DNA of 43,843 nucleotides from Treponema sp. GTDB taxonomy: Bacteria > Spirochaetota > Spirochaetia > Treponematales > Breznakiellaceae. A program made the position numbers and the translations under genes. Location of the stretch: contig JAITUR010000107.1 in NCBI GenBank assembly GCA_031286205.1, positions 1-43,843 on the forward strand. The letters run 5' to 3'. The first letter of the stretch is position 1, and each line of letters starts with the position of its first letter. The notes under the pieces are model-generated. The model had not been told where the DNA came from, searched no databases, and worked only from the letters and a program-made list of their open reading frames with translations. Shown piece after piece: positions 6,555-30,377 of the stretch.

Positions 6555-6570
6555 GGGGTAGGAGCGCATA

Positions 6571-6780
6571 GGTAACTATTGCCGCCCTGCGCTTACGCGC
6601 ATAGTTCTACCGGGGCGGGATTTGGGGCGGCAAAAACATTTTCAGGGATTCCCCGCTGGAGAGACCTCGCTGTTTCCTTTGGAAAAAGCGGGGCTCGTAA
6701 GCGGATTCCCCCTTAAGTTTTTGGCGGCACAAATCCCACCCCGGCGGCTAAGATTTAGCGAGTAAAGGTGGAATCTTAAA
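6571..6780. repeat. structured interspersed repeat, copy A
   Basis: One of four related copies (also 7668, 8768, 10135). The element begins with a small inverted repeat (ggtaact..., answered by ...catagttctacc). A long imperfect stem follows, whose arms are accggggcgggatttggggc (about 6609-6628) and its complement near 6725-6745. Inside it is a second stem CCCCGCT/AGCGGGG (6651-6657 with 6687-6693). This copy lacks the usual right end (gtaacagctaccc); a separate palindrome at 6781-6872 takes its place. Open frames inside it are likely spurious. Confidence 0.8.
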
Positions 6781-6872
6781 AGATCGTCGAATTACGCGAA
6801 TTATTGCTTAGATTTCTGATTCTTAATTCGCGCCGTACCGCAGGGTACGCATTCGCGTTAATTCGATGATCA
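6781..6872. repeat. ~92-bp palindrome
   Basis: An inverted repeat with outer arms gatcgtcgaattacgcgaat (6781-6800) and its near-perfect complement ending 6872 (attcgcgttaattcgatgatc). Inside is a tight hairpin CGTACC-GCA-GGGTACG-like core near 6834-6849. It replaces the right end of repeat A and lies a few bases 3' of the RelE-type toxin gene (minus strand). It could stabilise or end that transcript, but it lacks a clean U tract. Confidence 0.65.
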
Positions 6873-6878
6873 AAAGCT

Positions 6879-7232
6879 TTATATTATTTCATCTAAAGGC
6901 ATATCTTTTAACAAATTTATCCAGTCCCTTCTACTATACATAAATCTGAGAATTTTTATATGTCTTTTTTTAATATCATCACTTTCTTTTATCACATAAA
7001 AAAGAGAATAATTATTAATTCTAATTGATCTTAATCCCAAATATGCTAAATATCTGTCGTTTACCAATGGGCGTGCGTATGGATTTTCTTTTAAAAATTC
7101 AATTTTTTCCAGCAAACCATTTTTTAATCTATTGGCAGCATTTAAATTGTTTAAAGTTTCCTTTATATATTTATGGACTTCTTCAATGTCTTCTGGAATA
7201 TATGGGGAAAACTCAACTCTGTACACTTTCAT
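6879..7232 (-). CDS. RelE/ParE-family toxin
   Basis: A 117-residue toxin of the RelE/ParE superfamily. It opens with the family-type YRVEFSPYIPEDIEEVHKYI. The middle carries NPYARPL and the strand pair LGLRSIRINNYSLFYVI, and it ends ILRFMYSRRDWINLL. In this superfamily the products are ribosome-dependent mRNA interferases (RelE) or gyrase poisons (ParE); sequence alone does not say which, although the FMYSRRDW ending is common in RelE/YoeB-like forms. It is encoded second, 3 nt after a Phd/YefM-type antitoxin (7236-7496), which is the usual order for this type. The pair lies between repeat copies A and B. Rejecting a housekeeping role rests on this pairing. Confidence 0.85.
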   Translation of the reverse strand: MKVYRVEFSPYIPEDIEEVHKYIKETLNNLNAANRLKNGLLEKIEFLKENPYARPLVNDRYLAYLGLRSIRINNYSLFYVIKESDDIKKRHIKILRFMYSRRDWINLLKDMPLDEII

Positions 7233-7235
7233 TCC

Positions 7236-7496
7236 TTATAAATTTTTAATAAATTTAATCATTTCCTCTTCATGTATTACTTCGCCATTTTCCATTCGTT
7301 TCAGAGCAATTTCGACTGCATGATACAATTCTAGCTTGCCCAATAATTGATCATATGTATCTTCGGTCATTACAGCATATCTGCCTTGACCATTGTTTGT
7401 TACAAATATCGGTTCTTTGTAATTCTGACAATATTCAAAAACTTCATTTATGTTATTTGAATAATTTATGCTTTTTCTAACGGCCTGTGCTTGCAT
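7236..7496 (-). CDS. Phd/YefM-family antitoxin
   Basis: An 86-residue antitoxin. The N-terminal part (about 8-60) has the Phd/YefM pattern, with RKSINYSNNINEVFEYC, then KEPIFVTNNGQGRYAVMTED, which dimerises and binds the operator. The C-terminal tail (about 60-86), acidic and charged, would wrap the toxin. The start ATG is preceded by AAGGGGG 8 nt upstream, a strong Shine-Dalgarno. The toxin gene follows after 3 nt, so the two are cotranscribed and probably autoregulated from the promoter at 7527-7555. Confidence 0.86.
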   Translation of the reverse strand: MQAQAVRKSINYSNNINEVFEYCQNYKEPIFVTNNGQGRYAVMTEDTYDQLLGKLELYHAVEIALKRMENGEVIHEEEMIKFIKNL

Positions 7497-7526
7497 ATAA
7501 TAACCCCCTTGTTATTGTATTGATTT

Positions 7527-7555
7527 AGCATATTATTACTTTGATATTTAGTCAA
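7527..7555 (-). promoter_or_regulatory. sigma70-type promoter of relE/phd-type pair
   Basis: On the minus strand TTGACT (7555-7550), a 17-nt spacer and TATGCT (7532-7527) lie about 30 nt before the antitoxin start. The spacer is AT-rich. The match is close to consensus in both boxes and the leader carries the strong Shine-Dalgarno. Confidence 0.6.
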
Positions 7556-7667
7556 GCTCCCTCTTATAATTTGGGGTTTTATCGCCGCTCGGAATGAAAA
7601 AAAAGAAGCGTGATTAATACCCAACAAAGTCGCGCAAATGCACCTGTTACCGCAATTTCACAGCGCA

Positions 7668-7893
7668 GATACTAACCACCCTACGCTTACGCGCATAATT
7701 CTACCGGGGCGGGATTTGGGTCGACAAAAACATTTTCAGGGGTTCCCCGCTGGAGAGACCTCGCTGTTTCCTTTGGAAAAAGCGGGGCTCGTAAGCGGAT
7801 TTCCCCCCCCCTTAAGTTTTTGGCGGCACAAATCCCACCCCGGCGGCTAAGATTTAGCGAGTAAAGGTGGAATCGTAAAAGTAACAGCTACCC
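7668..7893. repeat. structured interspersed repeat, copy B
   Basis: Full-length copy with the same order as A: left hairpin (diverged), long-stem arm accggggcgggatttgggt, inner CCCCGCT/AGCGGGG stem, answering arm and right end gtaacagctaccc. It carries a run of nine C (7802-7810) where A and C have about five, a homopolymer-length difference. A 70-codon open frame crosses it (7638-7850), but the equivalent frame is not conserved as a gene in the other copies. It lies between the RelE/Phd and GNAT pairs. Confidence 0.82.
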
Positions 7894-7965
7894 GGATTAC
7901 CTTTTTAACATTTCCATTATATTAGTGAACCACTTCTACTCATTGATATATATCTTTTCTCATAC

Positions 7966-8499
7966 TTATAGTTTTTCTGTTCTTGTTGAAAAGTTCGGTA
8001 TTTGGAATGAAACCATTTTTTTGTAAAATGCAAGAACGCCTGCATCGTGCTCAATATCAGCATCTACAGTTAGAAAACGGCAAGCGCAGAAGTTTATATT
8101 ACACGACCATGCAAGTCTCTCCGCACTGTTTATCATGAATGTCCCAATACCTTTATATCTTTGTGAAAAAGAGCAATCTACCGCCAATTTTGCAATCTTC
8201 ATTGAAGGTATCGTTTTAAATGGATAGTTTAGATTATGAAGTTCTTTTTCGGTAAAAGACAACTTTATTGAATCCATAATCAGAGACATATAAGCTACAA
8301 TTTTTTCTGTAGATCGTTCTGTTAAAAGCCAGGTAAGTGCGATATGATCATTCATGGAACACAGAGAATCTTTTACAAGATATTCATTATATTCGGTTAT
8401 TCCACAATCAAAATTGCCAAGATTAATTGAAGCGGAAAGAAGATTTAATTTAAATTCATTGAAACGCCCGCTTTTTTCAAATTCCTGACGCTTGGACAT
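7966..8499 (-). CDS. GNAT acetyltransferase, TacT-like candidate toxin
   Basis: A 177-residue GNAT protein. It has the FDCGITEYNEYLVKDS opening typical of TacT/AtaT-type toxins, then IVAYMSLIMDSI, the strand MKIAKLAVDCSFSQRY, the acetyl-CoA loop RYKGIGTFMINSAERLAW (R-Y-K-G-I-G as the Q/RxxGxG motif), and the late FLTVDADIEHDAGVLAFYKK. In known TacT-type systems the toxin acetylates the amino group of charged tRNAs and is neutralised by a ribbon-helix-helix DUF1778 antitoxin. Here the ATG overlaps the stop of a 50-codon ORF (TAATG), and no DUF1778 gene is seen. The family call is secure; the toxin role is inferred from motif style, gene pairing and the neighbouring toxin-antitoxin pair. Confidence 0.78.
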   Translation of the reverse strand: MSKRQEFEKSGRFNEFKLNLLSASINLGNFDCGITEYNEYLVKDSLCSMNDHIALTWLLTERSTEKIVAYMSLIMDSIKLSFTEKELHNLNYPFKTIPSMKIAKLAVDCSFSQRYKGIGTFMINSAERLAWSCNINFCACRFLTVDADIEHDAGVLAFYKKMVSFQIPNFSTRTEKL

Positions 8500-8651
8500 T
8501 ATTGGAAAAATTTGTCTATAAAATCCGCTTTTTTCTTGAGCTTCCGGTAAACCGAGGCGGGTATGGGTTTACGGATATGATCAATAACTTTACGGGCGAT
8601 TTTTTTGTCTTTTATCTCCGTCGGCTGAACGGGTTTTACTTTGACTGCCAT
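8499..8651 (-). CDS. 50-residue basic protein, candidate GNAT partner
   Basis: A short ORF immediately upstream of, and overlapping, the GNAT gene by one base (TAATG). The product starts MAVKVKPVQPTEIKDKKIAR, is strongly basic (about 14 Lys/Arg in 50 residues) and ends KKKADFIDKFFQ. AAAGG precedes the ATG and a good promoter lies at 8669-8697. Position and coupling are those of an antitoxin. The sequence is too short for a DUF1778 antitoxin, and I do not recognise the family. It could be a novel small antitoxin, a truncated remnant, or a leader peptide. Confidence 0.6.
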   Translation of the reverse strand: MAVKVKPVQPTEIKDKKIARKVIDHIRKPIPASVYRKLKKKADFIDKFFQ

Positions 8652-8668
8652 TATGTTACCTTTGAATA

Positions 8669-8697
8669 AATATAACATTTTTTAGAGAGTTTGACAA
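8669..8697 (-). promoter_or_regulatory. sigma70-type promoter of the GNAT pair
   Basis: On the minus strand TTGTCA (8697-8692), a 17-nt spacer and TATATT (8674-8669), 17 nt before the ATG of the 50-codon ORF. Both boxes match consensus at five of six positions and the spacing is ideal. It supports the 50-codon ORF being transcribed as the first gene of the pair. Confidence 0.62.
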
Positions 8698-8767
8698 TAG
8701 CAAATTCGCTCTCACAAGTATCCCCTTTCCCAATGGAATTTACAGGAAAATACATAGGAAACGCAAA

Positions 8768-8992
8768 GGTAACTATGCGCATCCGTTATATACTAAGCAC
8801 ATAGTTCTACCGGGGCGGGATTTGGGTCGGCAAAAACATTTTCAGGGATTCCCCGCTGGAGAGACCTCGCTATTTCCTTTGGAAAAAGCGGGGCTCGTAA
8901 GCGGATTCCCCCTGAGTTTTTGACGACACAAATCCCGCCCCGGCGGATAAGATTTAGCGAGCAAAGAGAGAATCACAAAATTAACAGCCACC
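8768..8992. repeat. structured interspersed repeat, copy C
   Basis: Full-length copy with the clearest left end: ggtaactatgcgc pairs with gcacatagttctacc to form the first hairpin. The long stem (accggggcgggatttgggtc with its complement near 8922-8944) and the inner CCCCGCT/AGCGGGG stem follow, and the copy closes with taacagccacc. The outermost ends form a weak terminal inverted repeat (GGTAACTAT against GGTGGCTGT on the other strand). Several base changes lie in stems (for example cccgcccc for cccacccc), and this one improves pairing, which suggests structure is under selection. Confidence 0.82.
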
Positions 8993-9010
8993 TAATTATC
9001 ACACACCTAA

Positions 9011-9099
9011 CCAATAGGTATCATAAAAACAACCACTTGGCAGTAGTATTTTCTTAACATGATTTATAGTTTCTTCAGCGGGGTTTCCCGCTGGAAAAA
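9011..9099 (+). repeat. 89-bp direct repeat, copy 2
   Basis: Second copy of the repeat at 1773-1861, same orientation, with about five differences. Here the hairpin is stronger: CAGCGGG-GTTT-CCCGCTG (9076-9093), against AGCGG/CCGCT in copy 1. It ends 18 bases before the ATG at 9118, so it would form most of the leader of that lipoprotein mRNA if transcription starts upstream. Confidence 0.78.
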
Positions 9100-9117
9100 C
9101 TATTAAGGAGTGTTAGT

Positions 9118-10032
9118 ATGAAACACAAAATTAAATTATTCGGGATTATTGCTCTTATAGCGGTAATCGGGTTTTTTATGACGGCTTGTCCGCCGGAGTC
9201 AGAGGTAGATTCGACTCCAGCCCCAACTATAGCTTTATCATTAAACACATGGACACAGGATAATCTTGCCACATCAAGCAGTGCAGTATGGTATAAGTTT
9301 GATGTTGTTAACGGTACTACCTACTATGTTTGGGTAATGGAGTATTGGTTCAATTCAGTAGATGTGGCAGACGGATATGCTGATGTAATGATTAGCGCAC
9401 ATTACGGCAGCCAAACCGGAACATCTATCTTTGCAAAAAGCGAAAATGGTGCTAATAACACCACTAACGCATATCCTGAGCGGCTGCCTACTGATGCTAA
9501 TTATTGGCCGCCGTCAAACTTCACGGCTACTCAGACCGGCACAGTGTATCTCAAAGTGGAAGCAACGAATGGTATTGGAATAAAAACCGGTCACTTTAAG
9601 GTAGCGGTTACAACCACTAATACAAGACTCCAGGGCGAAAAAGACATGACCATCGGCAGATGGTATCAGGGCAATCTTCCCAACACAAACAGCGAAACAT
9701 GGCATACTTTCGCAGTCGAGTCGGGTACTACTTACTATGTTTGGGTAAAGGAGTATTGGTCCAATTCAGTAGTAGTGGCAGACGGATATGCTGATGTTGT
9801 ATTTGTCGCAAGATATACAAGCAAAACAGGAACGATTGCCATTGAGGAAACTAATAACGGCGCTTTTTCTACTTCTACTTCCGCTTCAAATCCGCATTGG
9901 CCAGCATCGAGCTTCACATCTAATGCCGGCGACACGATGTATCTTAGGGTATATCCAGACCCGGCTCTGCCTATAAAAGGCATTTATAAAGTAGCAGTTA
10001 CAACAACCGCCGCTAGACCGTCCGGCGAGTAA
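9118..10032 (+). CDS. lipoprotein with two tandem ~125-residue domains
   Basis: A 304-residue lipoprotein. The signal peptide ends FFMTAC with lipidated C24. Two homologous beta-rich domains follow, about 40-169 and 177-302, offset by 137 residues. Each carries 'GTTYYVWV(M/K)EYW', then 'VADGYADV', a TGT motif, and ends 'G(H/I)(F/Y)KVAVTTT'. The internal similarity shows a duplication within the gene. The fold resembles jelly-roll carbohydrate- or PPC-type modules in strand pattern, but I cannot assign a family. AAGGAG is placed 8 nt before the ATG (9103-9108). Direct repeat copy 2 is directly upstream, hairpins and repeat D are downstream. Probably an exported ligand-binding or adhesin-like protein. 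Confidence 0.72.
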   Translation: MKHKIKLFGIIALIAVIGFFMTACPPESEVDSTPAPTIALSLNTWTQDNLATSSSAVWYKFDVVNGTTYYVWVMEYWFNSVDVADGYADVMISAHYGSQTGTSIFAKSENGANNTTNAYPERLPTDANYWPPSNFTATQTGTVYLKVEATNGIGIKTGHFKVAVTTTNTRLQGEKDMTIGRWYQGNLPNTNSETWHTFAVESGTTYYVWVKEYWSNSVVVADGYADVVFVARYTSKTGTIAIEETNNGAFSTSTSASNPHWPASSFTSNAGDTMYLRVYPDPALPIKGIYKVAVTTTAARPSGE

Positions 10033-10046
10033 CACATTCATCCCAA

Positions 10047-10126
10047 CGGCGCCGCACAGGCGCCGGGGATATTTCCTCCATTCTTTTTGGGACATACCCC
10101 CTCTCCTTGCTTTTGGGATATGTCCC
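10047..10126. terminator. hairpin pair after lipoprotein gene
   Basis: Two inverted repeats follow the stop at 10032. The first is a perfect GC-rich stem CGGCGCC-GCACA-GGCGCCG (10047-10065). The second pairs GGGACATA (10089-10096) with TATGTCCC (10119-10126). T-rich sequence (ttctttttgg, 10081-10090) follows the first stem only loosely. It probably acts as a transcription end or mRNA 3' stabiliser. Confidence 0.5.
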
Positions 10127-10134
10127 ATATTTAA

Positions 10135-10228
10135 GGTAACTATGCGCATCCGTTATATACTAAGCACATAGTTCTACCGGGACGGGGTTTAGCGAGTAAA
10201 GGGGGAAGAATAAAGGTAACAGCTACCC
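10135..10228. repeat. structured interspersed repeat, copy D (internally deleted)
   Basis: The left 49 bases (ggtaactatgcgc to ttctaccggg) match copy C almost exactly and the right end (tttagcgagtaaag to ggtaacagctaccc) matches copy B. About 130 bases of central stem are missing, with the junction inside 'gggacggggttt'. A deletion of the palindromic centre while both ends survive is typical of replication slippage across a long hairpin, or of a minimal non-autonomous form. Confidence 0.75.
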
Positions 10229-14970: not shown

Positions 14971-15447
14971 ATGAGTGAATACAAAAGACCAAGCTGGGAT
15001 GAATATTTTATGGAGGTTTGCGAAGCAATCTCCAAACGGGCAACCTGCGACCGCGGAAGAAGCGGCTGTGTAATTGCCAAAAACAAACAGATTCTGGTTA
15101 CCGGTTATGTAGGTTCTCCAACGGGGCTTCCCCACTGCGACGAAGTTGGGCATCAATATAAACAAATGCTCCACGAGGACGGAAATGTTACCAAACACTG
15201 CGTAAGAACTGTCCATGCCGAGCAGAACGCCATTTGCCAGGCTGCAAAAATGGGCATTCCTATAGATGGAGCGACACTTTACTGCAGAATGACCCCTTGC
15301 CGTACCTGCGCAATGTTAATAATTAACTGCGGAATAAAGCGCGTTGTAGCACAGCGCCGTTATCAGGACAGCGAAGATACTATAGAAATGTTTAAAAAAG
15401 CAGGAGTCGAGCTTGAGCATTTAATCGATGAACTACAACAGTATTAA
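14971..15447 (+). CDS. deoxycytidylate deaminase
   Basis: A 158-residue cytoplasmic dCMP/ComEB-type deaminase that converts dCMP to dUMP for thymidylate synthesis. The zinc site is clear: H82-A83-E84 (VHAEQNAIC, with E84 the proton shuttle) and P-C110-R-T-C113. The substrate-side motif TGYVGSPTGLPHCDEVGHQ is also present. Length and layout are normal for the family. The start is fixed by the promoter 7 nt upstream, and there is no Shine-Dalgarno, so translation is probably leaderless. The stop overlaps the 3' end of the convergent gene by 15 nt. Confidence 0.92.
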   Translation: MSEYKRPSWDEYFMEVCEAISKRATCDRGRSGCVIAKNKQILVTGYVGSPTGLPHCDEVGHQYKQMLHEDGNVTKHCVRTVHAEQNAICQAAKMGIPIDGATLYCRMTPCRTCAMLIINCGIKRVVAQRRYQDSEDTIEMFKKAGVELEHLIDELQQY

Positions 15448-16428
15448 GTTTGATTCAAGAATAATTCTGTATTTTAAGTAAATTTCTTCCAATGTATAAT
15501 ATGGTCCCGGTGCTTTAACCCTTTTTCGCAATAAACAGGCATCTCTTCTTTCGACAAAGAAATCGTAAATAGCCCGCGGGTCATAAGTATTTACTACAGA
15601 ATAAACCGGCCTGGAATCTAAATAAGATCGCAATTCGTTATGACCCACAGATGATACCCCGTATTTTTTTAATCTGGAACGAACCTGCGCTATTTCCTCG
15701 AAAGATAACCCAAAAAGAAATTCCTCCAATGCCCATCTGGTTCTTTCGTTTGTGGATTCGTCTTTTAAGAAATCGAGCCATTCGGTATCTGCATCCATAT
15801 CTATGGAAATCCTTAATAATTCCGAATTTCCGTCCATTGTCCCAAAACATGGCGGAGAAGAATCCCTGGCAGACCATAGGGAAGAAAGTGCCATAAGATG
15901 ACGGACACTGCGGGGATCAATCCCTGAATCCCAAAGAGAAATTAAATCATCTGCCAGCTTGGTTTTGGTATCGCTGGAAAAACTTGGGTCTTCCAGACAG
16001 GAAAAATAAACCTCTTCCGCCATCATGGTAAAAACTACGGAAAAAGAGATATTTCTTGCCGGTTTATACAGGTCATTATTTCCGCTGGTAAGGGTGCAAA
16101 TTCTGGAAAAAGCATGAAATTTAGCAATTAAAAAACTCCGTAAAGCCGCTACTTTGGCGGGAGTACGCAAAAGATGGGATATTGCGGAAAAAGCAAGCAA
16201 GGATTCTGTAAGATTTTCGTTTACAAGAATATCTCTTACATAAGTTGTATCTTTTATGGATGGATAATCGAAAACTACATGACCCAGATTTCGTAAACGC
16301 CTAAACCTTTCGCTAATTAATACCTGCTCGTGGGGGTTATTTTCCCTAAGCCATTCATCGACATTTTTTATAAGCAATTCTTCTTCTGCGGATAATACTT
16401 GCATAGAATTTAAGATTAACGAGTCCAT
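15433..16428 (-). CDS. conserved hypothetical helical protein
   Basis: A 331-residue soluble protein, almost wholly alpha-helical, with no signal peptide or membrane segment. I recognise no catalytic motif. A C-terminal stretch (FFVERRDACLLRKRVKAPGP) is basic. The N-terminal ~100 residues resemble a helical scaffold (LLAFSAISHLLRTPAKVAAL). It has its own probable promoter at 16437-16465 with the ATG 8 nt after the -10 box, and overlaps the deaminase gene tail to tail by 15 nt. Function is unknown. Confidence 0.75.
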   Translation of the reverse strand: MDSLILNSMQVLSAEEELLIKNVDEWLRENNPHEQVLISERFRRLRNLGHVVFDYPSIKDTTYVRDILVNENLTESLLAFSAISHLLRTPAKVAALRSFLIAKFHAFSRICTLTSGNNDLYKPARNISFSVVFTMMAEEVYFSCLEDPSFSSDTKTKLADDLISLWDSGIDPRSVRHLMALSSLWSARDSSPPCFGTMDGNSELLRISIDMDADTEWLDFLKDESTNERTRWALEEFLFGLSFEEIAQVRSRLKKYGVSSVGHNELRSYLDSRPVYSVVNTYDPRAIYDFFVERRDACLLRKRVKAPGPYYTLEEIYLKYRIILESNLILL

Positions 16429-22220: not shown

Positions 22221-22249
22221 TTGACAGTATTCCATGAATGGAATATAAT
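22221..22249 (+). promoter_or_regulatory. consensus promoter with internal palindromic operator (higBA)
   Basis: TTGACA (22221-22226), a 17-nt spacer and TATAAT (22244-22249), both perfect. Within the spacer and -10 lies a perfect palindrome TATTCCAT-GA-ATGGAATA (22228-22245). A repressor bound there would block RNA polymerase. The obvious ligand is the HigA antitoxin. The toxin's ATG at 22256 is 6 nt after the -10 box. Confidence 0.75.
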
Positions 22250-22255
22250 ATAAAT

Positions 22256-22612
22256 ATGTGGAATGTTGAATATACAGACGAATTTGGGGAATGGTGGGAA
22301 ACTCTTAATGAAGATGAGCAAAACGCGGTAGCTTATTCGGTGTGTTTATTGCAAAGCGAAGGTCCGGCATTGAAATTTCCTCATAGCTCTGATGTCAAAC
22401 AGTCAAGGCATAAAAATATGCGTGAATTACGAAGTCAATGTAAAGGAAAACCGTATAGAACTTTTTATGCGTTTGATCTAGGACGCACCGCCATATTACT
22501 AATCGGCGGGAATAAGACGGGTAACGATGATTTTTATGATGAGATGGTTCCCAAGGCAGATAAGATTTATGATCAATACTTGAAAGAAATACAGGAGGAA
22601 AAAAATGGCTAA
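22256..22612 (+). CDS. higB: HigB-type toxin (RelE superfamily)
   Basis: A 118-residue RelE-superfamily mRNA interferase of the HigB/Gp49-like group. It opens MWNVEYTDEFGEWWETL, and the core has KFPHSSDVKQSRHKNMRELR, then PYRTFYAFDLGRTAILLIGG and the final YDEMVPKADKIYDQYL, all typical. The ATG at 22256 is chosen because an in-frame ATG at 22238 lies upstream of the promoter's -10 box and cannot be on its transcript. The chosen codon would be at the mRNA 5' end, so translation is probably leaderless. Toxin-first order with an 8-nt overlap into the antitoxin gene is standard for higBA. Cytoplasmic. Confidence 0.88.
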   Translation: MWNVEYTDEFGEWWETLNEDEQNAVAYSVCLLQSEGPALKFPHSSDVKQSRHKNMRELRSQCKGKPYRTFYAFDLGRTAILLIGGNKTGNDDFYDEMVPKADKIYDQYLKEIQEEKNG

Positions 22613-22913
22613 AAATTTTTCTGAATTACTGAAAAAAATGAACCCCGAACGCAGAGCAAAAATTGATGCAGAAGTTAAAAAGACTTTGGCAGAAATGCCA
22701 TTGCAGGAACTAAGAAACGCCCGAGGGCTTTCGCAGGTGATGCTTGCCGAGGCTCTGCATATTCAACAACCTGCAATTGCAAAACTGGAGAAGCGGACGG
22801 ATATGTATATCTCTACTTTACGGAGTCATATACGAGCCATGGGGGGCGAGCTTGACATTATCGCCCGATTCCCTGATGGAGATGTAAGGATATCCAATTT
22901 TTCACAGATTTAG
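22605..22913 (+). CDS. higA: HigA-type antitoxin (XRE-HTH)
   Basis: A 102-residue antitoxin with an XRE-type helix-turn-helix at about 35-90 (MPLQELRNARGLSQVMLAEA, then LHIQQPAIAKLEKRTDMYIS). A short C-terminal beta part follows (GELDIIARFPDGDVRIS). The N-terminal helices probably contact the toxin. It overlaps higB by 8 nt, and AGGAGG precedes its ATG inside higB. It probably represses the promoter through the palindrome at 22228-22245. Confidence 0.9.
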   Translation: MAKNFSELLKKMNPERRAKIDAEVKKTLAEMPLQELRNARGLSQVMLAEALHIQQPAIAKLEKRTDMYISTLRSHIRAMGGELDIIARFPDGDVRISNFSQI

Positions 22914-22947: not shown

Positions 22948-23343
22948 TTAATCATCCATAAATATTTCCATTTCAATATTTATATAACTATCATCGTTGT
23001 TTATTGCTTTAACTGTGCCGTATATTAGCTTTCCGGCATCCAAAAGTCTTGCTAAAATAGGATTTTTATTTCGTGGGACATAGCCAAGTTTATTTGCATA
23101 TTGATCTTTTACAATAATAGCTAATTCATCATGTTGATTATCTGGCTCTCTTATAAAACTTAATTTTGAACCTATCTGTATTTCATCAAGCAAGTCGTAA
23201 ATATTTTCAACATAATAAGAACCGGCGATTGAAGCAGATATTAGATAGATTTGTCTGGAAAACGGCTTCCCAATGTCCAGACCGCCTGGAGAATTCAAAA
23301 TAGAAACTATATTTGTATCATCAATACGAATTATATCACTCAT
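22948..23343 (-). CDS. HIRAN-domain protein
   Basis: A 131-residue protein made mostly of a HIRAN domain (about 30-125). It carries IGSKLSFIREPDNQHDELAI, then LGYVPRNKNPILARLLDAGK, the signature seen in HLTF and many bacterial stand-alone forms. HIRAN domains bind DNA ends, often ssDNA 3' ends. It starts 3 nt after the stop of the J-domain protein, with no separate Shine-Dalgarno, so it is translationally coupled. It is the last gene of the minus-strand island operon. Here it may sense damaged or foreign DNA; that role is inferred. Convergent with higA. Confidence 0.82.
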   Translation of the reverse strand: MSDIIRIDDTNIVSILNSPGGLDIGKPFSRQIYLISASIAGSYYVENIYDLLDEIQIGSKLSFIREPDNQHDELAIIVKDQYANKLGYVPRNKNPILARLLDAGKLIYGTVKAINNDDSYINIEMEIFMDD

Positions 23344-23346
23344 ACG

Positions 23347-24147
23347 CTATTTAACCATTGATAACAGTCGTTTTTCAATATCTAAATATTGATTTTGATA
23401 TTCGGTTAGAGCATCAGATAATTCTTCAATTTTTTGCTGCAGTAGATCATTGTTCTGTAGTAATTCTTTTACATTATATGGGAATTTTGTCTTTATGGAT
23501 TGAATGTCACTAATTAAATATTTTTTTTCATAAGATAGTTTTTCTTTCCGTTCATTTAGTTTATCCAAAGAATTGGAAGTATTTTTAATTGTCGTTTTTT
23601 CTAAAAGCAGAAAAATTATACGCATTTCTGAAAGGTCTGCATTTTTATACGCATTAACGGCATCTATAAATTGACCATGCTGTTCTTCCGTTGTATCAGG
23701 GTTTAGATCGGGATGAAGTTTTTTAACTATTTGTGTGTATAGTTTTTTTATTTCTATAGATTCTTCGTCAGTTAATTGTGTACCGTAATTACTTTTCCTA
23801 AAGCGGGCTTCTTCTATTCTCTGTTGCTTCTCTTTGAGTTTTTCAGAATATTCTTGCTGTTCTTTGTCGAGTTGTTTTTCTATTTCATCGATATTATACG
23901 ATTGCTCTTTATTTAAAAATGATTGTATTATTTCTATCTTGCGTTTTACTCTTAAAATTTTACATTGATATTCAAAAATGCTGCATTCAAGTTTTCCTAT
24001 TTTTAGCATATATTCTGTTTCTATTTGCGGGCATGTATGATAAAGTAAATTGTCTCGTTCATAAACAAGACTTGCTAATTCAGTCTCAAGTTCCTGAATA
24101 GAGAAAATAAGTTCTTCATATTCTTTATTTCTTGAAATTTCGCTCAT
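23347..24147 (-). CDS. coiled-coil protein with J-like domain
   Basis: A 266-residue protein. Coiled coils cover about 8-35, 80-118 and 190-262. Between them sits a DnaJ-like segment (about 127-172) with helix II KKLYTQIVKKLHPDLNP holding the diagnostic HPD (145-147), then a partial helix III (QFIDAVNAYKNADLSEM). A J domain recruits and stimulates Hsp70. The surrounding coils suggest a scaffold that brings Hsp70 to a complex. GGAG precedes the ATG. It lies 78 nt after the phosphoesterase-NTPase gene and 3 nt before the HIRAN gene, so the three form an operon. AT-rich, like its neighbours. Confidence 0.8.
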   Translation of the reverse strand: MSEISRNKEYEELIFSIQELETELASLVYERDNLLYHTCPQIETEYMLKIGKLECSIFEYQCKILRVKRKIEIIQSFLNKEQSYNIDEIEKQLDKEQQEYSEKLKEKQQRIEEARFRKSNYGTQLTDEESIEIKKLYTQIVKKLHPDLNPDTTEEQHGQFIDAVNAYKNADLSEMRIIFLLLEKTTIKNTSNSLDKLNERKEKLSYEKKYLISDIQSIKTKFPYNVKELLQNNDLLQQKIEELSDALTEYQNQYLDIEKRLLSMVK

Positions 24148-24225
24148 TTTTTCTCCGGTTGTTTACTTCTATTGGGGTGTAGGGCATTGGGGTCTCCTTT
24201 GGTTTTTTAAAAAACAATTGATAAA

Positions 24226-27225
24226 TTATTTTTTATTACTTTTATAAGAAATTGATAATACCTGTTTTTTTGATGATGAAGTAAATATTTTATCAGCAAT
24301 TTTATCTTTTATATTAAAATCAACATTTCGTGTAATAAGATGTTTTCTTGCAACCATTTTTATTAAATTTGATAATAATAAATCATTTTTACTTTCTTTA
24401 AGCTTTATAGCCTTATTTACAAAATTCTCTGTTGTTCCTCCATTTTCTTCCATAATCAGATTGGATATTTTATAATTCGTTGTTTTCATATCTACCTCAT
24501 TTAGTAAATATAGCGTATCTGTACTTGATCCAAAATATGCGACATGGTCATAAAGTGACAAACATATTGAAATCGCTGAACGATAAAATATTTCTTCTAT
24601 ATCTTGTTTTCTTAACTTAGACGCTTCATCAGTATCTGTGGATTTAATAGATTCATAAATATCATCTATTATTTCATTATATTGATCATCATGAGGTTTA
24701 AATATTGCATATAAAATACGGTTTGGTGCAGAATACATTTGTTCTATTATTTTTTTCTTTTCAGATAGCTCAAAATTAACATTATGACTAATTAATGATT
24801 TTGAAATAATCTCAAGATATTTTACAGCTCTGACAATTCTATTTTTTAAAGTATCTGCATCTTTTTCATTGTAGTCGTATACACTCCTAAATTGTATTTC
24901 CTCATTTTCTTCTTTCCTAAAATGCTTTTCATGATCATCAACTCTTTTTTCCATTTCTTTTTTGTCTTTTTGGGTAGGAATACTCACAGAGAAATCATGT
25001 TGAGGATTTATAAATCCAATATTATTTATATCAAAATTTAATTCATCGAATTCTCTTACTATAGAATCTAGCAACTCACAAATATTAAGTGCAAATTTAG
25101 TATTATTACGTAAAAAAGATAAGAATAAAAGTATATTGTCATTTATTCCGAAACAAATATTTTTGAAAATATATTCTAATTCAAGAATATCAAGTCCATT
25201 ATTTTCGATAAGTTTATTCAGTTTTTTTGCAATAAAATATGCAAGGTAATTTCTATTAGAAAACTCAAAACTATTGTCGTCATCATATTTTTTAATTATT
25301 TTCGAACTTAGAATTATCCCAAAACATTTTTCAATATCTATTTTTAAACCACGATTTTTATTGATTTCATCAATGATGTTTACAATATTTGGATATAAAA
25401 TACGTTCATTTTTATTTTTATGCATACTGAAAGCTATCTCTTCAAGTGATATCAAACAATAATCAACATATCTTTCAGGAGAATTATCTATAATAGCTTT
25501 TCTTATATTGGTTTCAAATATTACATTGAAAACTGCTTCGCCTTTGGTGGTATCATCTGGCTTACTTAGAAAATATTTTACATACTGTACTATATATTCA
25601 GGTGATAACTCAAACAAGCCAAAACGACGTTTTACAAGATTATCAATTATTTCCATTATATTGTTGTCTAACAATTCACTTTTTATTTCATTATTTAAGT
25701 CACATAATTTATTTATTAATTCATTACGTTTTTCTTTATAAAAATCTTCAATATTGATATTGTAATACTCATTATCTCCGATGATTTCTTCTTTTGTCAT
25801 ATGTTTAACATCAAGCTCAAGCCGTTTTTTTGAAGTGAAAACAATAAAAGAAAATTTGTCTTTTGCAACATCTAATAATATTTTTTGACTGTTTTCAGGT
25901 TTAATTAAATCTAAATCATCTATAAATAGAATTTTCTTATTAATTTCTGTTTGCTCATATTTTTCAAAAAGAAAAACTTCTTCTCCATATTGCAAATCAA
26001 AATTATATTTTATTATTTTATCGACAGAAGACTTTACTCGATGAGAATCGGAGCCAATATAAATTGGTAACATTTGTTTTTCTATACATTTGTTAAAAAA
26101 ATATTTAATTAAAGTAGTCTTGCCACTCCTAGACTTTCCCGATATATTTATAATTTTATGCTCTGATAATTCTTTCCAAAATATTTCTTCCGTTAATAAT
26201 TTACTGTCTTCTTGGGATTTTTTTATTTCATGATATAGTTTAGGAAAAACAAAATAATCTAATACATTTTTTGAAATCTTGATAGGGTCTTCAAAGAATG
26301 AGTTAATAAAATTACTATTCGGTTTTAAAAAGGTTGCTTTAGGTGTTATAGTAAACTGTCGTTCATTAGATGTTTTACAGAACATTGTTTTTTCATCATT
26401 CCATTCAAAGTTAATTTCTTCGCATATATTTGAGCATGTATCAAAAGTCAATATGGAGAAAGTACTTTTATGGGTCATTGCTCCAGAAAATTCACCACCT
26501 TTTGAAAGTAAATAGCCATCACTCTGGATAGTGCGAACATTATGTTCATGTCCTTGAAATACAATATCTGAATGTCCACGAATCATTTTTTCTAATGCTT
26601 CTTTTGTTTTAGAATGAAACCATTCTGTACTGTGATGCATTACAGTAATTGACAAATTAACATTATCTTTTTTTACCAATGAAAATAAAAATGAATCCGG
26701 CAAGTGATGAATTTCTTTGTTATCTTTCCTTAATGTCGAAAAGGGGGCTGTATTTATTAAATTATACTGAATTTTATACCCTTTCACATCAATTATGCGC
26801 GAATCTACTACTTTATCACTAACAAAGCATTTTTTTGATTTTTCAAAATAAAAAAAATTATCTTGTGAACTAAGTTCAAGGTTAAAATACTGGTCTTCTA
26901 TTCCTTGTTTAAAATATGATAGAATATTATCACTTGTTCGAGCATCTGAAGGTAGTATCATATCATGATTTCCAGGTACAAGATATAACTCTATATAATG
27001 ATCTTTACTTTTTCTAAGCTTTGGTAATAGTGATGCAAAAAAAGCACTCACACATTTATATTCTTCTTTTTTCCCGGAAAATGCTAAATCACCAGAACAA
27101 ATGAGTATACACTTTTCTACTTTGTCAATTATTTGAGTAGCATTAATAATTTTATCAACCTTTAAGTTGATTTGTGAATCATCTTTAATGTGTAGATCGC
27201 TTAAATGTAAAAATAGGATTTTCAT
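24226..27225 (-). CDS. metallophosphoesterase fused to STAND-like NTPase
   Basis: A 999-residue multidomain protein. The N-terminal calcineurin-like phosphoesterase (1-270) has a complete metal site: DLH (10-12), GD (45-46), GNHD (85-88), MHH (196-198) and GHEH (225-228). A P-loop NTPase follows, with Walker A GKSRSGKT (363-370) and Walker B KILFIDDLDL (431-440). The remaining ~550 residues are helical, charged and of no recognised family. The order effector - NTPase - large C-terminal region is that of STAND-type immune sensors (Avs-like and NLR-like), where the C-terminus recognises an invader and oligomerisation activates the N-terminal enzyme. AAGGAG precedes the ATG. Strongly AT-rich. 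The role in defence is inferred; the domains are seen. Confidence 0.85.
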   Translation of the reverse strand: MKILFLHLSDLHIKDDSQINLKVDKIINATQIIDKVEKCILICSGDLAFSGKKEEYKCVSAFFASLLPKLRKSKDHYIELYLVPGNHDMILPSDARTSDNILSYFKQGIEDQYFNLELSSQDNFFYFEKSKKCFVSDKVVDSRIIDVKGYKIQYNLINTAPFSTLRKDNKEIHHLPDSFLFSLVKKDNVNLSITVMHHSTEWFHSKTKEALEKMIRGHSDIVFQGHEHNVRTIQSDGYLLSKGGEFSGAMTHKSTFSILTFDTCSNICEEINFEWNDEKTMFCKTSNERQFTITPKATFLKPNSNFINSFFEDPIKISKNVLDYFVFPKLYHEIKKSQEDSKLLTEEIFWKELSEHKIINISGKSRSGKTTLIKYFFNKCIEKQMLPIYIGSDSHRVKSSVDKIIKYNFDLQYGEEVFLFEKYEQTEINKKILFIDDLDLIKPENSQKILLDVAKDKFSFIVFTSKKRLELDVKHMTKEEIIGDNEYYNINIEDFYKEKRNELINKLCDLNNEIKSELLDNNIMEIIDNLVKRRFGLFELSPEYIVQYVKYFLSKPDDTTKGEAVFNVIFETNIRKAIIDNSPERYVDYCLISLEEIAFSMHKNKNERILYPNIVNIIDEINKNRGLKIDIEKCFGIILSSKIIKKYDDDNSFEFSNRNYLAYFIAKKLNKLIENNGLDILELEYIFKNICFGINDNILLFLSFLRNNTKFALNICELLDSIVREFDELNFDINNIGFINPQHDFSVSIPTQKDKKEMEKRVDDHEKHFRKEENEEIQFRSVYDYNEKDADTLKNRIVRAVKYLEIISKSLISHNVNFELSEKKKIIEQMYSAPNRILYAIFKPHDDQYNEIIDDIYESIKSTDTDEASKLRKQDIEEIFYRSAISICLSLYDHVAYFGSSTDTLYLLNEVDMKTTNYKISNLIMEENGGTTENFVNKAIKLKESKNDLLLSNLIKMVARKHLITRNVDFNIKDKIADKIFTSSSKKQVLSISYKSNKK

Positions 27226-27256
27226 AATTAAAATATACTCCTTATATCAACTGTCC

Positions 27257-27367
27257 TCATCCCCTTTCCACCTTCGGCAACCCCGCCACAATATTCACAG
27301 TCTTCATACTAACAGCAATAACCGACAAAAGCAAGTCCAATTTCCGAGCAACTCTGTTATCAAACAT
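27257..27367 (-). CDS. possible 36-residue ORF between island genes
   Basis: An ORF reads MFDNRVARKLDLLLSVIAVS and 16 further residues. Its ATG overlaps the last codons of the restriction-methylase gene (ATGTTTGA), with AAGGA about 9 nt upstream. It ends before the Shine-Dalgarno of the phosphoesterase gene. It is less AT-rich than its neighbours. It may be a coupled micro-protein or a remnant of a deleted gene; the evidence for expression is weak. Confidence 0.3.
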   Translation of the reverse strand: MFDNRVARKLDLLLSVIAVSMKTVNIVAGLPKVERG

Positions 27368-30300
27368 TCTCTATTATCCTTATTTCTTCATGGGTAAGTT
27401 TATAAAGTTCGTAAAATATTTTATTAATTTTATCTTCACTATGTAATATTTGTGTCTTTAATTGCTCTTTTTGGTTGGGTAAAGTAGCATTTTGCAGCTC
27501 TTTGTACAAGTTCAATAGCAGTTTGGCATATTTTATAACTTGGGATTTTTTTCCTTCGTCATTTGTATCTAATAATGGAATATTTAAAATAGGTTCTTTG
27601 TCAACTTGAAAAATATTACCTTGCATTTTTCCTTTGTTTTTAAGCCAAAAAGCAACTGTTTTAGAATTTAATAATGCAGTTAAATACATTTGATTGATTC
27701 GTTTAGTTTTAATAATATAGAAAGCTGCCGATGCATAACAGTCAAAATCAGTATAGGTAAATGTTGGCTCTGAACATTTACGAATAGCCATTATTTTTTC
27801 ACCTTTAAAAAACTTTTCTTCTCTTGAACGATGTAACCCATAAGGTTTATTATCAGATGTAATAATGTTCTTAAATTGGTCTAAATGTTTTTTTAAATTT
27901 GGATAATTTTTTATTCTACTTGGATTTTTAAAATCAGAAGTGGTATATATTATCCAGAGTTTATTTTCATTATCGCCATAGTATCTGCCTAATTGTTCTG
28001 TGTTATTATAATATGGTTTTAATATTAATTTTTCATCTTTTGTTAGCCGCAAGCTCTTTTTCTCTTTATGAGATAATCCAAAAATACCTTGACCTTTTAC
28101 ATATTTGCCTTTTGATTTTTCTGCAATTTGCTTGCTGACAAAATCATAATGAGGGTGTATACCATTAGTAACTTCTTCTTTGCCATCTAAAACAAAATTC
28201 TTTTTAGCCTGTATCTTATTAAGTAAATTTTCTGTTTTTCTATCTCCAAATACCAAGTATTTATCTTTATAATCATTTGGTATTATAGATGGCATAAGGT
28301 AATTTAATCCTTGATCAGCCTCTTTTCCTAACAGTTTATATGCCGACTGAATGGCAGGCTTGTTTAAGTCCAATTTTCTATAATCAAAAGAGTATGAAGC
28401 TTGTTTTTTCTTTTCTAAAATTAATACCATTGTTTGAATACTGGCACTGTCAAAAACCATGTAAGAGCCAAAATCAATAATATTTTTAATAATACTGTCT
28501 TCCAATATTTTATTTCTGAGAATACTGGAACCTGCATTTGTAACCCAATTATTAGGAACAATATAACCTAAAATACCGTTTGGCTTTAGTAAATCAATGC
28601 CATAACAAACAAAGAAATACCATAAATCCATTTTTCCCTGATAATATTTTAATAAATGAGACTGTTTTATTTGATCAAATGTTTCTTTGCTTGTATATTC
28701 CTTTACATAAGGAGGATTACCAATTACACAATCAAAACCGCCCTGGACAAAAACAGACGGGAAATTCTTCTCCCATGAAAAAGGCTTTACTTTCTTTTCT
28801 TCGCCAAAATCCAAATTATTATCATAATAATCTAAGCCAATTAAGCTGTTGCCGCATTTTATATTATTATCCAAGTCCGGTAAGACACGGTCGTGAAAAA
28901 GATTTGCCTGTATTTCGATAGATTCTTTTGTTTCACCTTCCATACATTTTAATAATAGAGACAATTTTGAAACTTCTACTGCGTTAGTATCTAAATCTAC
29001 GCCAAATATGTTATTTAATAGAATCTTCTTTTTTATTTCTGTAGTTAATTCACCTGACGGAGTTAAGGGGCTATTTTTCTTGCCTTTGTCCTGACCTTCA
29101 TTTTTATTGTAGTAATCCTTATGCCAATTTAATAAATATTGATAAGCGCCAATTAAAAAACTACCGCTTCCGCAGGCAGGGTCTACAATTTTTATTTTAC
29201 TTACTTCTAATGGTGTCAGATTTCCGATTAGACTTTCTACGGTATTTTTAACTATAAAGTCAACAATGTACTGAGGTGTATAATAAACCCCTCCAGCCTT
29301 ACGAACTTCGGGTTTCTCCTCAATAACAGCACGACCGCTTTTTGAAAGAGAGATTTCCTTTCCTAAAAATTGTTCGTACGCACTTCCCAATATTTCTACT
29401 GCCATTACAGAAAATTCGTAAGGACATATAGGGGGATAAAGTTCAGATATAATACTTTTTATTGTTTTTGGCTGAATAATTATTTTTTCACTTAATGTAT
29501 CCTTTTTAAAATCAAACAGGCTGGAATTGTATTTTTGATCGGCAGTATTGCAAATACTCAATATGTTTTTATAATAATCACCGCTTTTTATTGTGTCCAT
29601 TAATTGTCCATAAGGTTCTATATGGCGGTCTTCGGCAATACGAAGGAAAATAATACGATTAATAATATTTTGTACGACATAATTCAATTCATCTTCATTG
29701 ATTTCATTATTTATAGATATATCTTTAGCTAACACAATACGCCATTTGTCAAGGGAATCAAGGAAATCCTTGTCAACTGTTGATGTACCTTTTTTATTAT
29801 CTTCATTTTGGATATACTTATCTAATCCGCCTTGTTGAACACGCGCTCTGCTGAATGTATCCCAAAAAAAATCAAACTTGGTAATGTAATCGGTGTATTC
29901 AAACTGCATAATTCTGGAAACGCCTGCTTTATCCGTTTGCTTTGTTTTAACTGTACAATCGTAAATAGCAAAATAATCAAAGTTAGTTAATATGCTTATT
30001 GATAAACCGGCACTCCAACCATATCTGCGTACTTGGATAGCGCTATCTGCATCTTCTTTGATATTTGTATGAGGTTTTTTTGCTTCAAGAAAAAACATTC
30101 GTTTTCCGCCAGGAAGTCTAAAAGAATAGTCGGGTAGTTTTGTTGAGCCGCTTACTTTCACTTTATCTTCATGAATAACTTCCCGATAACTTTGCAAACT
30201 ATTACTTTTATTCGCTACATCCCAACCAAGAGCTTCCCAAAATGGGTCTATAAAATCCCGCCTGGTTTGTGTTTCATTATATTCCTGTTTTTTATATATT

Positions 30301-30377
30301 TCATGCTGATCAGCAAAACGATGCACGAGTTCTTTTGTTTTCATTAGCGCTTCTTCTTTGCTTGTTTGGATAAACAT
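27360..30377 (-). CDS. type IIG-like restriction enzyme-methyltransferase
   Basis: A 1005-residue Eco57I-like fused enzyme. The N-terminal HsdR_N-type nuclease (about 20-145) has the PD-(D/E)xK core with D83 (LPDYSF) and E98-x-K100 (FFLEAKK). A helical connector leads to the N6-adenine methylase: motif I DPACGSGSF (399-407) and motif IV NPPY (554-557). The C-terminal ~350 residues resemble a target-recognition domain (TaqI-like). A single such protein cuts and methylates DNA. The ATG at 30377 is not preceded by a clear Shine-Dalgarno; one at 30344 (MKTKEL) is an alternative. It is first in the minus-strand island. Whether it shares transcription with the genes downstream is open (134-nt gap). 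Confidence 0.9.
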   Translation of the reverse strand: MFIQTSKEEALMKTKELVHRFADQHEIYKKQEYNETQTRRDFIDPFWEALGWDVANKSNSLQSYREVIHEDKVKVSGSTKLPDYSFRLPGGKRMFFLEAKKPHTNIKEDADSAIQVRRYGWSAGLSISILTNFDYFAIYDCTVKTKQTDKAGVSRIMQFEYTDYITKFDFFWDTFSRARVQQGGLDKYIQNEDNKKGTSTVDKDFLDSLDKWRIVLAKDISINNEINEDELNYVVQNIINRIIFLRIAEDRHIEPYGQLMDTIKSGDYYKNILSICNTADQKYNSSLFDFKKDTLSEKIIIQPKTIKSIISELYPPICPYEFSVMAVEILGSAYEQFLGKEISLSKSGRAVIEEKPEVRKAGGVYYTPQYIVDFIVKNTVESLIGNLTPLEVSKIKIVDPACGSGSFLIGAYQYLLNWHKDYYNKNEGQDKGKKNSPLTPSGELTTEIKKKILLNNIFGVDLDTNAVEVSKLSLLLKCMEGETKESIEIQANLFHDRVLPDLDNNIKCGNSLIGLDYYDNNLDFGEEKKVKPFSWEKNFPSVFVQGGFDCVIGNPPYVKEYTSKETFDQIKQSHLLKYYQGKMDLWYFFVCYGIDLLKPNGILGYIVPNNWVTNAGSSILRNKILEDSIIKNIIDFGSYMVFDSASIQTMVLILEKKKQASYSFDYRKLDLNKPAIQSAYKLLGKEADQGLNYLMPSIIPNDYKDKYLVFGDRKTENLLNKIQAKKNFVLDGKEEVTNGIHPHYDFVSKQIAEKSKGKYVKGQGIFGLSHKEKKSLRLTKDEKLILKPYYNNTEQLGRYYGDNENKLWIIYTTSDFKNPSRIKNYPNLKKHLDQFKNIITSDNKPYGLHRSREEKFFKGEKIMAIRKCSEPTFTYTDFDCYASAAFYIIKTKRINQMYLTALLNSKTVAFWLKNKGKMQGNIFQVDKEPILNIPLLDTNDEGKKSQVIKYAKLLLNLYKELQNATLPNQKEQLKTQILHSEDKINKIFYELYKLTHEEIRIIENV

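What the first reader, a model, noticed from the sequence alone, without database searches (positions are those of the whole stretch)
6571..10228. Cassette-like alternation of a ~225-bp structured repeat with toxin-antitoxin pairs
Three full copies (6571, 7668, 8768) and one internally deleted copy (10135) lie in the same orientation. Between them sit, in turn, a RelE/Phd pair, a GNAT/50-residue pair, and a duplicated-domain lipoprotein. The first two repeat-to-repeat steps are almost equal (1097 and 1100 bp). This resembles a modular array in which each unit is one repeat plus one selfish module. No transposase or integrase is nearby, so the repeat may be a non-autonomous mobile element or a structured recombination site.
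Basis: partly seen in the sequence, partly recalled or inferred. Interest (0 to 1): 0.68.

Follow-up and report, generated by a model that had tools for sequence, protein, structure and literature searches.

The report
Dispersed hairpin repeat bracketing small genes
The repeat is one member of an apparently undescribed family of hairpin-forming, mobile-looking DNA elements scattered through termite-gut Treponema genomes; most copies stand alone beside ordinary genes, but they also pair up about 1 kb apart, far more often than chance, around small accessory genes such as toxin-antitoxin pairs.

Summary
In detail: three full repeats (hairpins 6610-6744, 7704-7843, 8810-8943) and one copy that lost its hairpin (10133-10228), all direct, about 1.1 kb apart, with a ParE/Phd pair, an AtaT/KacT-like GNAT toxin plus a 59-aa partner, and a lipoprotein between them. 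The repeat belongs to a large structured family not in Rfam. A covariance model finds it in 42 of 394 genomes of the order, all in one family, with 5 copies here and at least 76 in one relative. Base pairs covary strongly; the core is conserved while the outer stems change but stay complementary. Elements are present or absent at the same intergenic site in different species. Most copies are solitary beside housekeeping genes, so the repeat is not a toxin-module part. Direct pairs 0.6-2 kb apart are still strongly enriched (19 against 2.9 expected, P 3e-10) and hold small accessory genes. In five pairs the two cores are 98-100% identical to each other and, where other copies could be compared, 79-84% to the best of them. 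Best reading: a MITE-like hairpin element that forms composite-transposon-like units. Integron membership fails. No mobilising enzyme was found.

The parts
6570..6782 (+). Copy A of the hairpin element (left end AGGTAACTAT; right terminal motif missing)
6610..6744 (+). Hairpin of copy A (CCGGGGCGGG...CCCACCCCGG), model hit 6619-6734
   Evidence: ends carried over from copy C by the alignment
7676..7892 (+). Copy B (left end diverged; right end GTAACAGCTACC at 7881-7892)
7704..7843 (+). Hairpin of copy B, model hit 7713-7833
8766..8992 (+). Copy C, both ends present (AAGGTAACTATG ... TTAACAGCCACC)
8810..8943 (+). Hairpin of copy C, model hit 8819-8933; this stretch matches the repeat's reverse complement
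10133..10228 (+). Copy D, ends only; whole hairpin deleted at a short ATTT/TTT repeat
6879..7232 (-). ParE/RelE-superfamily toxin
   Evidence: Pfam ParE_toxin E 3.2e-10; RelE_StbE below cut-off
7236..7496 (-). Phd/YefM-like antitoxin
   Evidence: Pfam PhdYeFM E 6.4e-6, below cut-off
7966..8499 (-). GNAT acetyltransferase, AtaT/KacT/TacT-like toxin
   Evidence: PDB 6gts 1.8e-6, 6ajm 3.2e-6, 5zgn (KacT) 1.3e-3; no Pfam hit
8499..8678 (-). 59-aa partner, candidate antitoxin by position only
   Evidence: abuts the GNAT gene; no family match
9118..10032 (+). Lipoprotein with duplicated domain, between copies C and D

Best explanation
The repeat is a copy of a non-coding, MITE-like hairpin element: an imperfect palindrome of about 150 bp inside a 200-300 bp unit, at least some units bounded by short terminal inverted repeats, found in one family of Treponema relatives. 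It inserts between genes, moved by an enzyme acting in trans that was not identified (inferred). The core is conserved and the arms are kept complementary, so the folded strand is probably what is recognised or protected (inferred). When two copies lie in direct orientation around a small gene, the whole behaves like a composite transposon or a recombination cassette (inferred from sister pairs), so small accessory genes, toxin-antitoxin pairs among them, gather in arrays such as this one. Shown here: family, structure, distribution, presence/absence at orthologous sites, enrichment of direct pairs, sister identity. Not shown: transposition, the enzyme, movement of the cargo.
For: Covariation: 813 cells changed on both sides against 279 in shuffles, score 0.558 against 0.07-0.12 with slid partners (the MAFFT alignment A1 likewise). 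Copy numbers 5 to 76 per genome, restricted to one family. Presence/absence at the same site: upstream of fliO, a 247-bp gap in G035 but a 2.5-kb island with two elements in G008 and one element in G002; at the junction of the dCMP deaminase gene and the next gene, a 490-bp insert with an element in G007 and no element in the other genomes compared. A 241-bp unit bounded by inverted repeats in G033. Direct pairs 19 against 2.9 expected. Sister pairs L052, L053, L054, L055 and L058 with cores 98-100% identical; best other copy compared 79-84%, none for L053. Cargo: ParE/Phd, HEPN/MntA, HEPN, DUF1902, three Rpn nucleases, lipoproteins; a TenpIN toxin lies in the G008 island. TIME-COMP2 is a published precedent: two direct MITE-type copies moving unrelated cargo (PMC4133298).
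Against: No autonomous partner or transposase was linked. No consistent target-site duplication. Terminal repeats differ between genomes (GTAnCTGTTAC type, AGAAATGTATGC type), and an inverted-repeat score above z 3 was seen in only 24 of 129 copies. In sister pairs the shared flanks vary from 25 to 153 bp, so the duplicated piece is not one fixed unit. In this genome the tandem copies are no closer to each other than to the dispersed copy on C113.
Confidence: 0.55

Rival explanations
1. Structured RNAs: long intergenic or 3'-UTR hairpins that spread by duplication and act on mRNA processing or termination; the pairs around small genes are a by-product of integration hot spots.
For: Strong covariation and a conserved core; G.T mismatches twice as common as A.C on the + strand (78 against 37 in 41 non-redundant copies, sign test P 0.0013); 31% of copies between convergent genes against 11% of other gene pairs.
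Against: No strong orientation preference relative to genes. Head-to-head pairs in G102 and G028 and sister pairs around cargo are not explained. The G.T excess also fits strand-biased cytosine deamination.
Confidence: 0.2
2. Local duplication: hairpin-induced breaks are repaired by capturing a foreign fragment while the hairpin and some flank are copied, leaving two sisters around the insert.
For: Sister pairs share locus-specific flanks of variable length; tandem half-hairpins and arm duplications in G013 and G002 show that the palindrome is prone to duplication; copy D shows hairpin deletion at short repeats.
Against: Does not explain dispersal to many loci or defined terminal repeats, nor pairs of different subfamilies.
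Confidence: 0.13
3. Integron-like cassettes: the hairpin is a single-strand-folded recombination site like attC, each cassette is one repeat plus one gene, and a tyrosine recombinase in trans moves them.
For: Direct orientation, about 1 kb steps, one gene or pair per interval, near-identical sites in some arrays. Stem mismatches are strand-asymmetric (G.T twice A.C), as for a site folded on one strand. Tyrosine recombinases related to IntI but below its cut-off exist in the genus.
Against: No IntI above cut-off in the 37 genus genomes searched, the window's included; Treponema integrons are reported as gained after the termite-gut species branched off (PMC3607928). No attC R boxes (RYYYAAC/GTTRRRY). 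Most copies solitary. Cargo orientation mixed.
Confidence: 0.12

Closest known systems
Bacterial MITEs such as Correia elements (Neisseria) and ERIC/IRU (enterobacteria)
   Same: Short, non-coding, palindromic, many intergenic copies per genome, some with terminal inverted repeats, presence/absence between relatives
   Different: Conserved core with changed but complementary arms; terminal repeats vary; restricted to one Treponema family; no parent insertion sequence found
TIME-COMP elements (two MITE-type copies flanking cargo, PMC4133298)
   Same: Two near-identical non-autonomous copies, also in direct orientation, around unrelated cargo without transposase
   Different: Transposition not demonstrated here; no target duplication seen; shared flank of the sisters varies
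REP/BIME and REPIN elements with RAYT transposases
   Same: Head-to-head hairpin pairs 300-500 bp apart in G102 and G028; palindromic GGTAnCwGnTACC motifs next to copies
   Different: The hairpin is far larger; presence of a Y1 transposase does not track the element
Integron attC/VCR arrays
   Same: Direct-repeat hairpins alternating with single genes, cargo including toxin-antitoxin pairs
   Different: No IntI, no R boxes, most copies solitary

Membership tests
MITE | Short (<500 bp), no coding capacity, multicopy | tested here: met
   200-300 bp, up to 76 copies
MITE | Terminal inverted repeats | tested here: inconclusive
   Clear in G033, G035, G001, G002, G005; short (about 9 bp) in this genome; a score above z 3 in 24 of 129 copies
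MITE | Target-site duplication | tested here: inconclusive
   No consistent duplication seen; a possible CTAG at one related unit in G033
MITE | Autonomous parent with the same ends | tested here: inconclusive
   None among 1.0 Mb of fetched loci; whole genomes were not searched for it
MITE | Insertion polymorphism between relatives | tested here: met
   fliO upstream and dCMP deaminase sites
Composite (TIME-COMP-like) unit | Two near-identical copies around cargo | tested here: met
   Five sister pairs, cores 98-100% identical
Composite (TIME-COMP-like) unit | The whole unit transposes | not testable with these tools
   needs a trap assay
Integron / attC | IntI integrase | tested here: not met
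   No hit above the TIGR02249 cut-off in the genus genomes searched
Integron / attC | R boxes RYYYAAC and GTTRRRY | tested here: not met
   Core boxes are AAAAAC and GTTTTT; stem bases unrelated; read by eye
Integron / attC | Sites in one array, cassettes co-oriented | tested here: not met
   Most copies solitary, cargo in both orientations
REP/BIME with RAYT | Cognate Y1 transposase in the genome | tested here: not met
   G000, G001, G005, G008 have 5-15 copies and no Y1_Tnp hit; G010 and G012 have Y1_Tnp and no element; the drafts are incomplete
Known Rfam RNA | Match above gathering score | tested here: not met
   Only tmRNA in the window; weak miRNA-hairpin matches in relatives

The most novel reading that the evidence does not exclude
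The hairpin is the folded single-strand site of an unrecognised cassette-shuttling system in gut Treponema, distinct from integrons, that captures and exchanges small genes such as toxin-antitoxin and Rpn modules at many chromosomal loci.
Probability: 0.12. Interest if true: 0.85.

Novelty: new variant of a known kind. Interest (0 to 1): 0.55.

Why it matters
It would explain how these symbionts gather small accessory genes without integrons or nearby transposases. It is also a clean case of arms changing under compensatory substitution around a fixed core, which makes it possible to ask whether bacterial palindromic repeats are kept for their folded DNA or for their RNA. In practice it also matters for assembly: many contigs of the high-copy genomes end close to a copy.

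Tried and rejected
Integron membership and RAYT linkage were rejected as above. Rfam: no family. Viral contigs, by an exact core pattern: no hit. Phages and plasmids, by blastn: no hit. The core pattern found one named record, MAG Treponema sp. isolate Cyl330_bin39. A search for an autonomous element with GTAnCTGTTAC ends found only non-coding units. Orientation relative to genes as proof of terminators: too weak. The equal spacing of 1097/1100 bp was first taken as meaningful and then dropped, since spacings elsewhere vary.

Full report
What is there. The window holds three direct copies of a repeat of about 220 bp and one copy lacking its hairpin. Read on the + strand, a full copy runs AAGGTAACTATG..., then a GC-rich stem (CCGGGGCGGGATTTGGG), a fixed box AAAAACATTTTC, a stem, GGAGAGACC, a variable tip, GGCTCGTA, the return arm, GTTTTT and the complementary GC-rich arm, and ends near GTAACAGCTACC. 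Both strands fold well beyond shuffles. Copy D keeps both ends and lacks everything between two short ATTT/TTT stretches, as slippage over a palindrome would give.

The genes between. A ParE/RelE-superfamily toxin and a Phd-like antitoxin lie between A and B. Between B and C lies a GNAT protein that Pfam misses but whose PDB relatives include KacT and other acetyltransferase toxins, with a 59-aa neighbour of unknown family. A lipoprotein with a duplicated domain lies between C and D.

A family, not a local oddity. BLASTN finds two further copies in the same genome and, in relatives, only the core. The relatives' hits turned out to be hairpins with the same core but different outer stems, each still complementary. 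A 12-sequence MAFFT alignment with a hand-written structure gave 19 of 34 pairs with changes on both sides. The covariance model R1 found the family in 30 of 100 relatives and in 42 of 394 genomes of the order, all within one family: at least 76 copies in G013, 43 each in G028 and G039, 28 in G059, 33 in the single-contig genome G102. G102 is 4,059,867 bp, which fits T. primitia ZAS-2 as I remember it; this was not checked. With 106 copies the covariation is far above shuffled and slid controls. That alignment was fitted to the structure, so one search is the cleaner test, although its structure was also written from one of its members. In other genera the fixed part shrinks to about GGAATTC...GGCGGA.TC.ACA, again with changed arms.

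RNA or DNA. In the outer stems G.T mismatches are about twice as common as A.C on the + strand, in both orientations of the pair and after thinning to 41 dissimilar copies (78 against 37, sign test P 0.0013). This says the + strand is special, through RNA folding, single-strand DNA folding or strand-biased deamination; it does not choose between them.

Insertion. Upstream of fliO, G035 has 247 bp between the neighbouring gene and fliO. G008 has the same flanks with a 2.5-kb island holding a TenpIN type III toxin with tandem repeats beside it, a 133-aa membrane-protein gene, an element, a lipoprotein and a second element whose right end meets native DNA at CTAT/TGCCATTAATAG. G002 has one element there with a repeated right half. 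Between the dCMP deaminase gene and the next gene, both present in this window at 14971-16428, G007 has a 490-bp insert holding an element and a second small inverted-repeat unit; the window and most other genomes compared have little or nothing there, and G033 has a different inverted-repeat unit of about 270 bp at that site. G033 also has a 241-bp unit with clear terminal repeats around the hairpin.

Singles and pairs. Neighbours of solitary copies are ordinary genes. Yet 19 same-strand pairs lie 600-2000 bp apart against 2.9 expected, with 6 opposite-strand pairs (the expectation assumes uniform placement and ignores the intergenic bias). Cargo of such pairs includes ParE/Phd, HEPN/MntA, a second HEPN, a DUF1902 protein, three Rpn nucleases, an EFR1 ferredoxin, lipoproteins and unknowns. 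Short intervals favour small genes, so the absence of housekeeping cargo is suggestive only. In five pairs the sisters are nearly identical and much less like any other copy that could be compared; not all copies of each genome were fetched, and for the G021 pair no other copy was. In this genome and in G001 all copies are alike; in G039 and part of G013 pairs mix subfamilies. So pairs arise in more than one way.

Judgement. The structure, the distribution and the insertion polymorphism are shown. That the element moves by transposition, and that pairs carry their cargo, is inferred from composite elements of the TIME-COMP kind (PMC4133298) and from MITE biology (PMC10969869). Integrons are set aside because no IntI passes in the genus, because the sites lack the attC boxes, and because a published survey places the Treponema integron after the termite-gut lineage split off (PMC3607928).

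Noticed in passing
1763-1868 and 9001-9106: A 106-nt repeat (89%) stands directly upstream of the lipoprotein at 9118 and again at 1763, so the lipoprotein and its leader may have come as a unit from a lipoprotein family.
   Followed up: no
window 22238-22913: A second toxin-antitoxin-like pair (Gp49/HigB-type toxin and HTH antitoxin) with no hairpin element beside it.
   Followed up: partly
window 22948-30377: HIRAN-domain protein, DnaJ-like protein, metallophosphoesterase with a weak STAND match, and an Eco57I-type restriction-modification protein in one run: a possible defence island.
   Followed up: partly
L052:3197-3777: TenpIN type III toxin (NCBIfam E 2.4e-37) next to two 41-nt repeats that could be its RNA antitoxin, inside the G008 island.
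   Followed up: partly
L200:2890-3080 and L052:3920-4050 (approximate): A second inverted-repeat unit with hairpin GGGGNCCTGTC...GCCACCCC and ends GAAGGTACGCTGCC or AGAAATGTATGC, in G007 and G008.
   Followed up: no
G102 and G028 (L180-L184, L058, L059, L106): Copies in close head-to-head pairs 300-500 bp apart, all in the order minus then plus.
   Followed up: partly
L061, L070, L084, L086, L133: Half-hairpins: the right arm with its tail, or the left arm with its flank, repeated in tandem next to a full copy.
   Followed up: no
L206:2342-2815 and L211:2561-3034: The dCMP deaminase gene is inverted in place in G002 and G028 relative to this window.
   Followed up: no
L099:724-1989 (G000:C89): A 421-aa tyrosine recombinase, partly IntI-like but below the cut-off; similar ones recur across the genus, often near contig ends.
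   Followed up: partly
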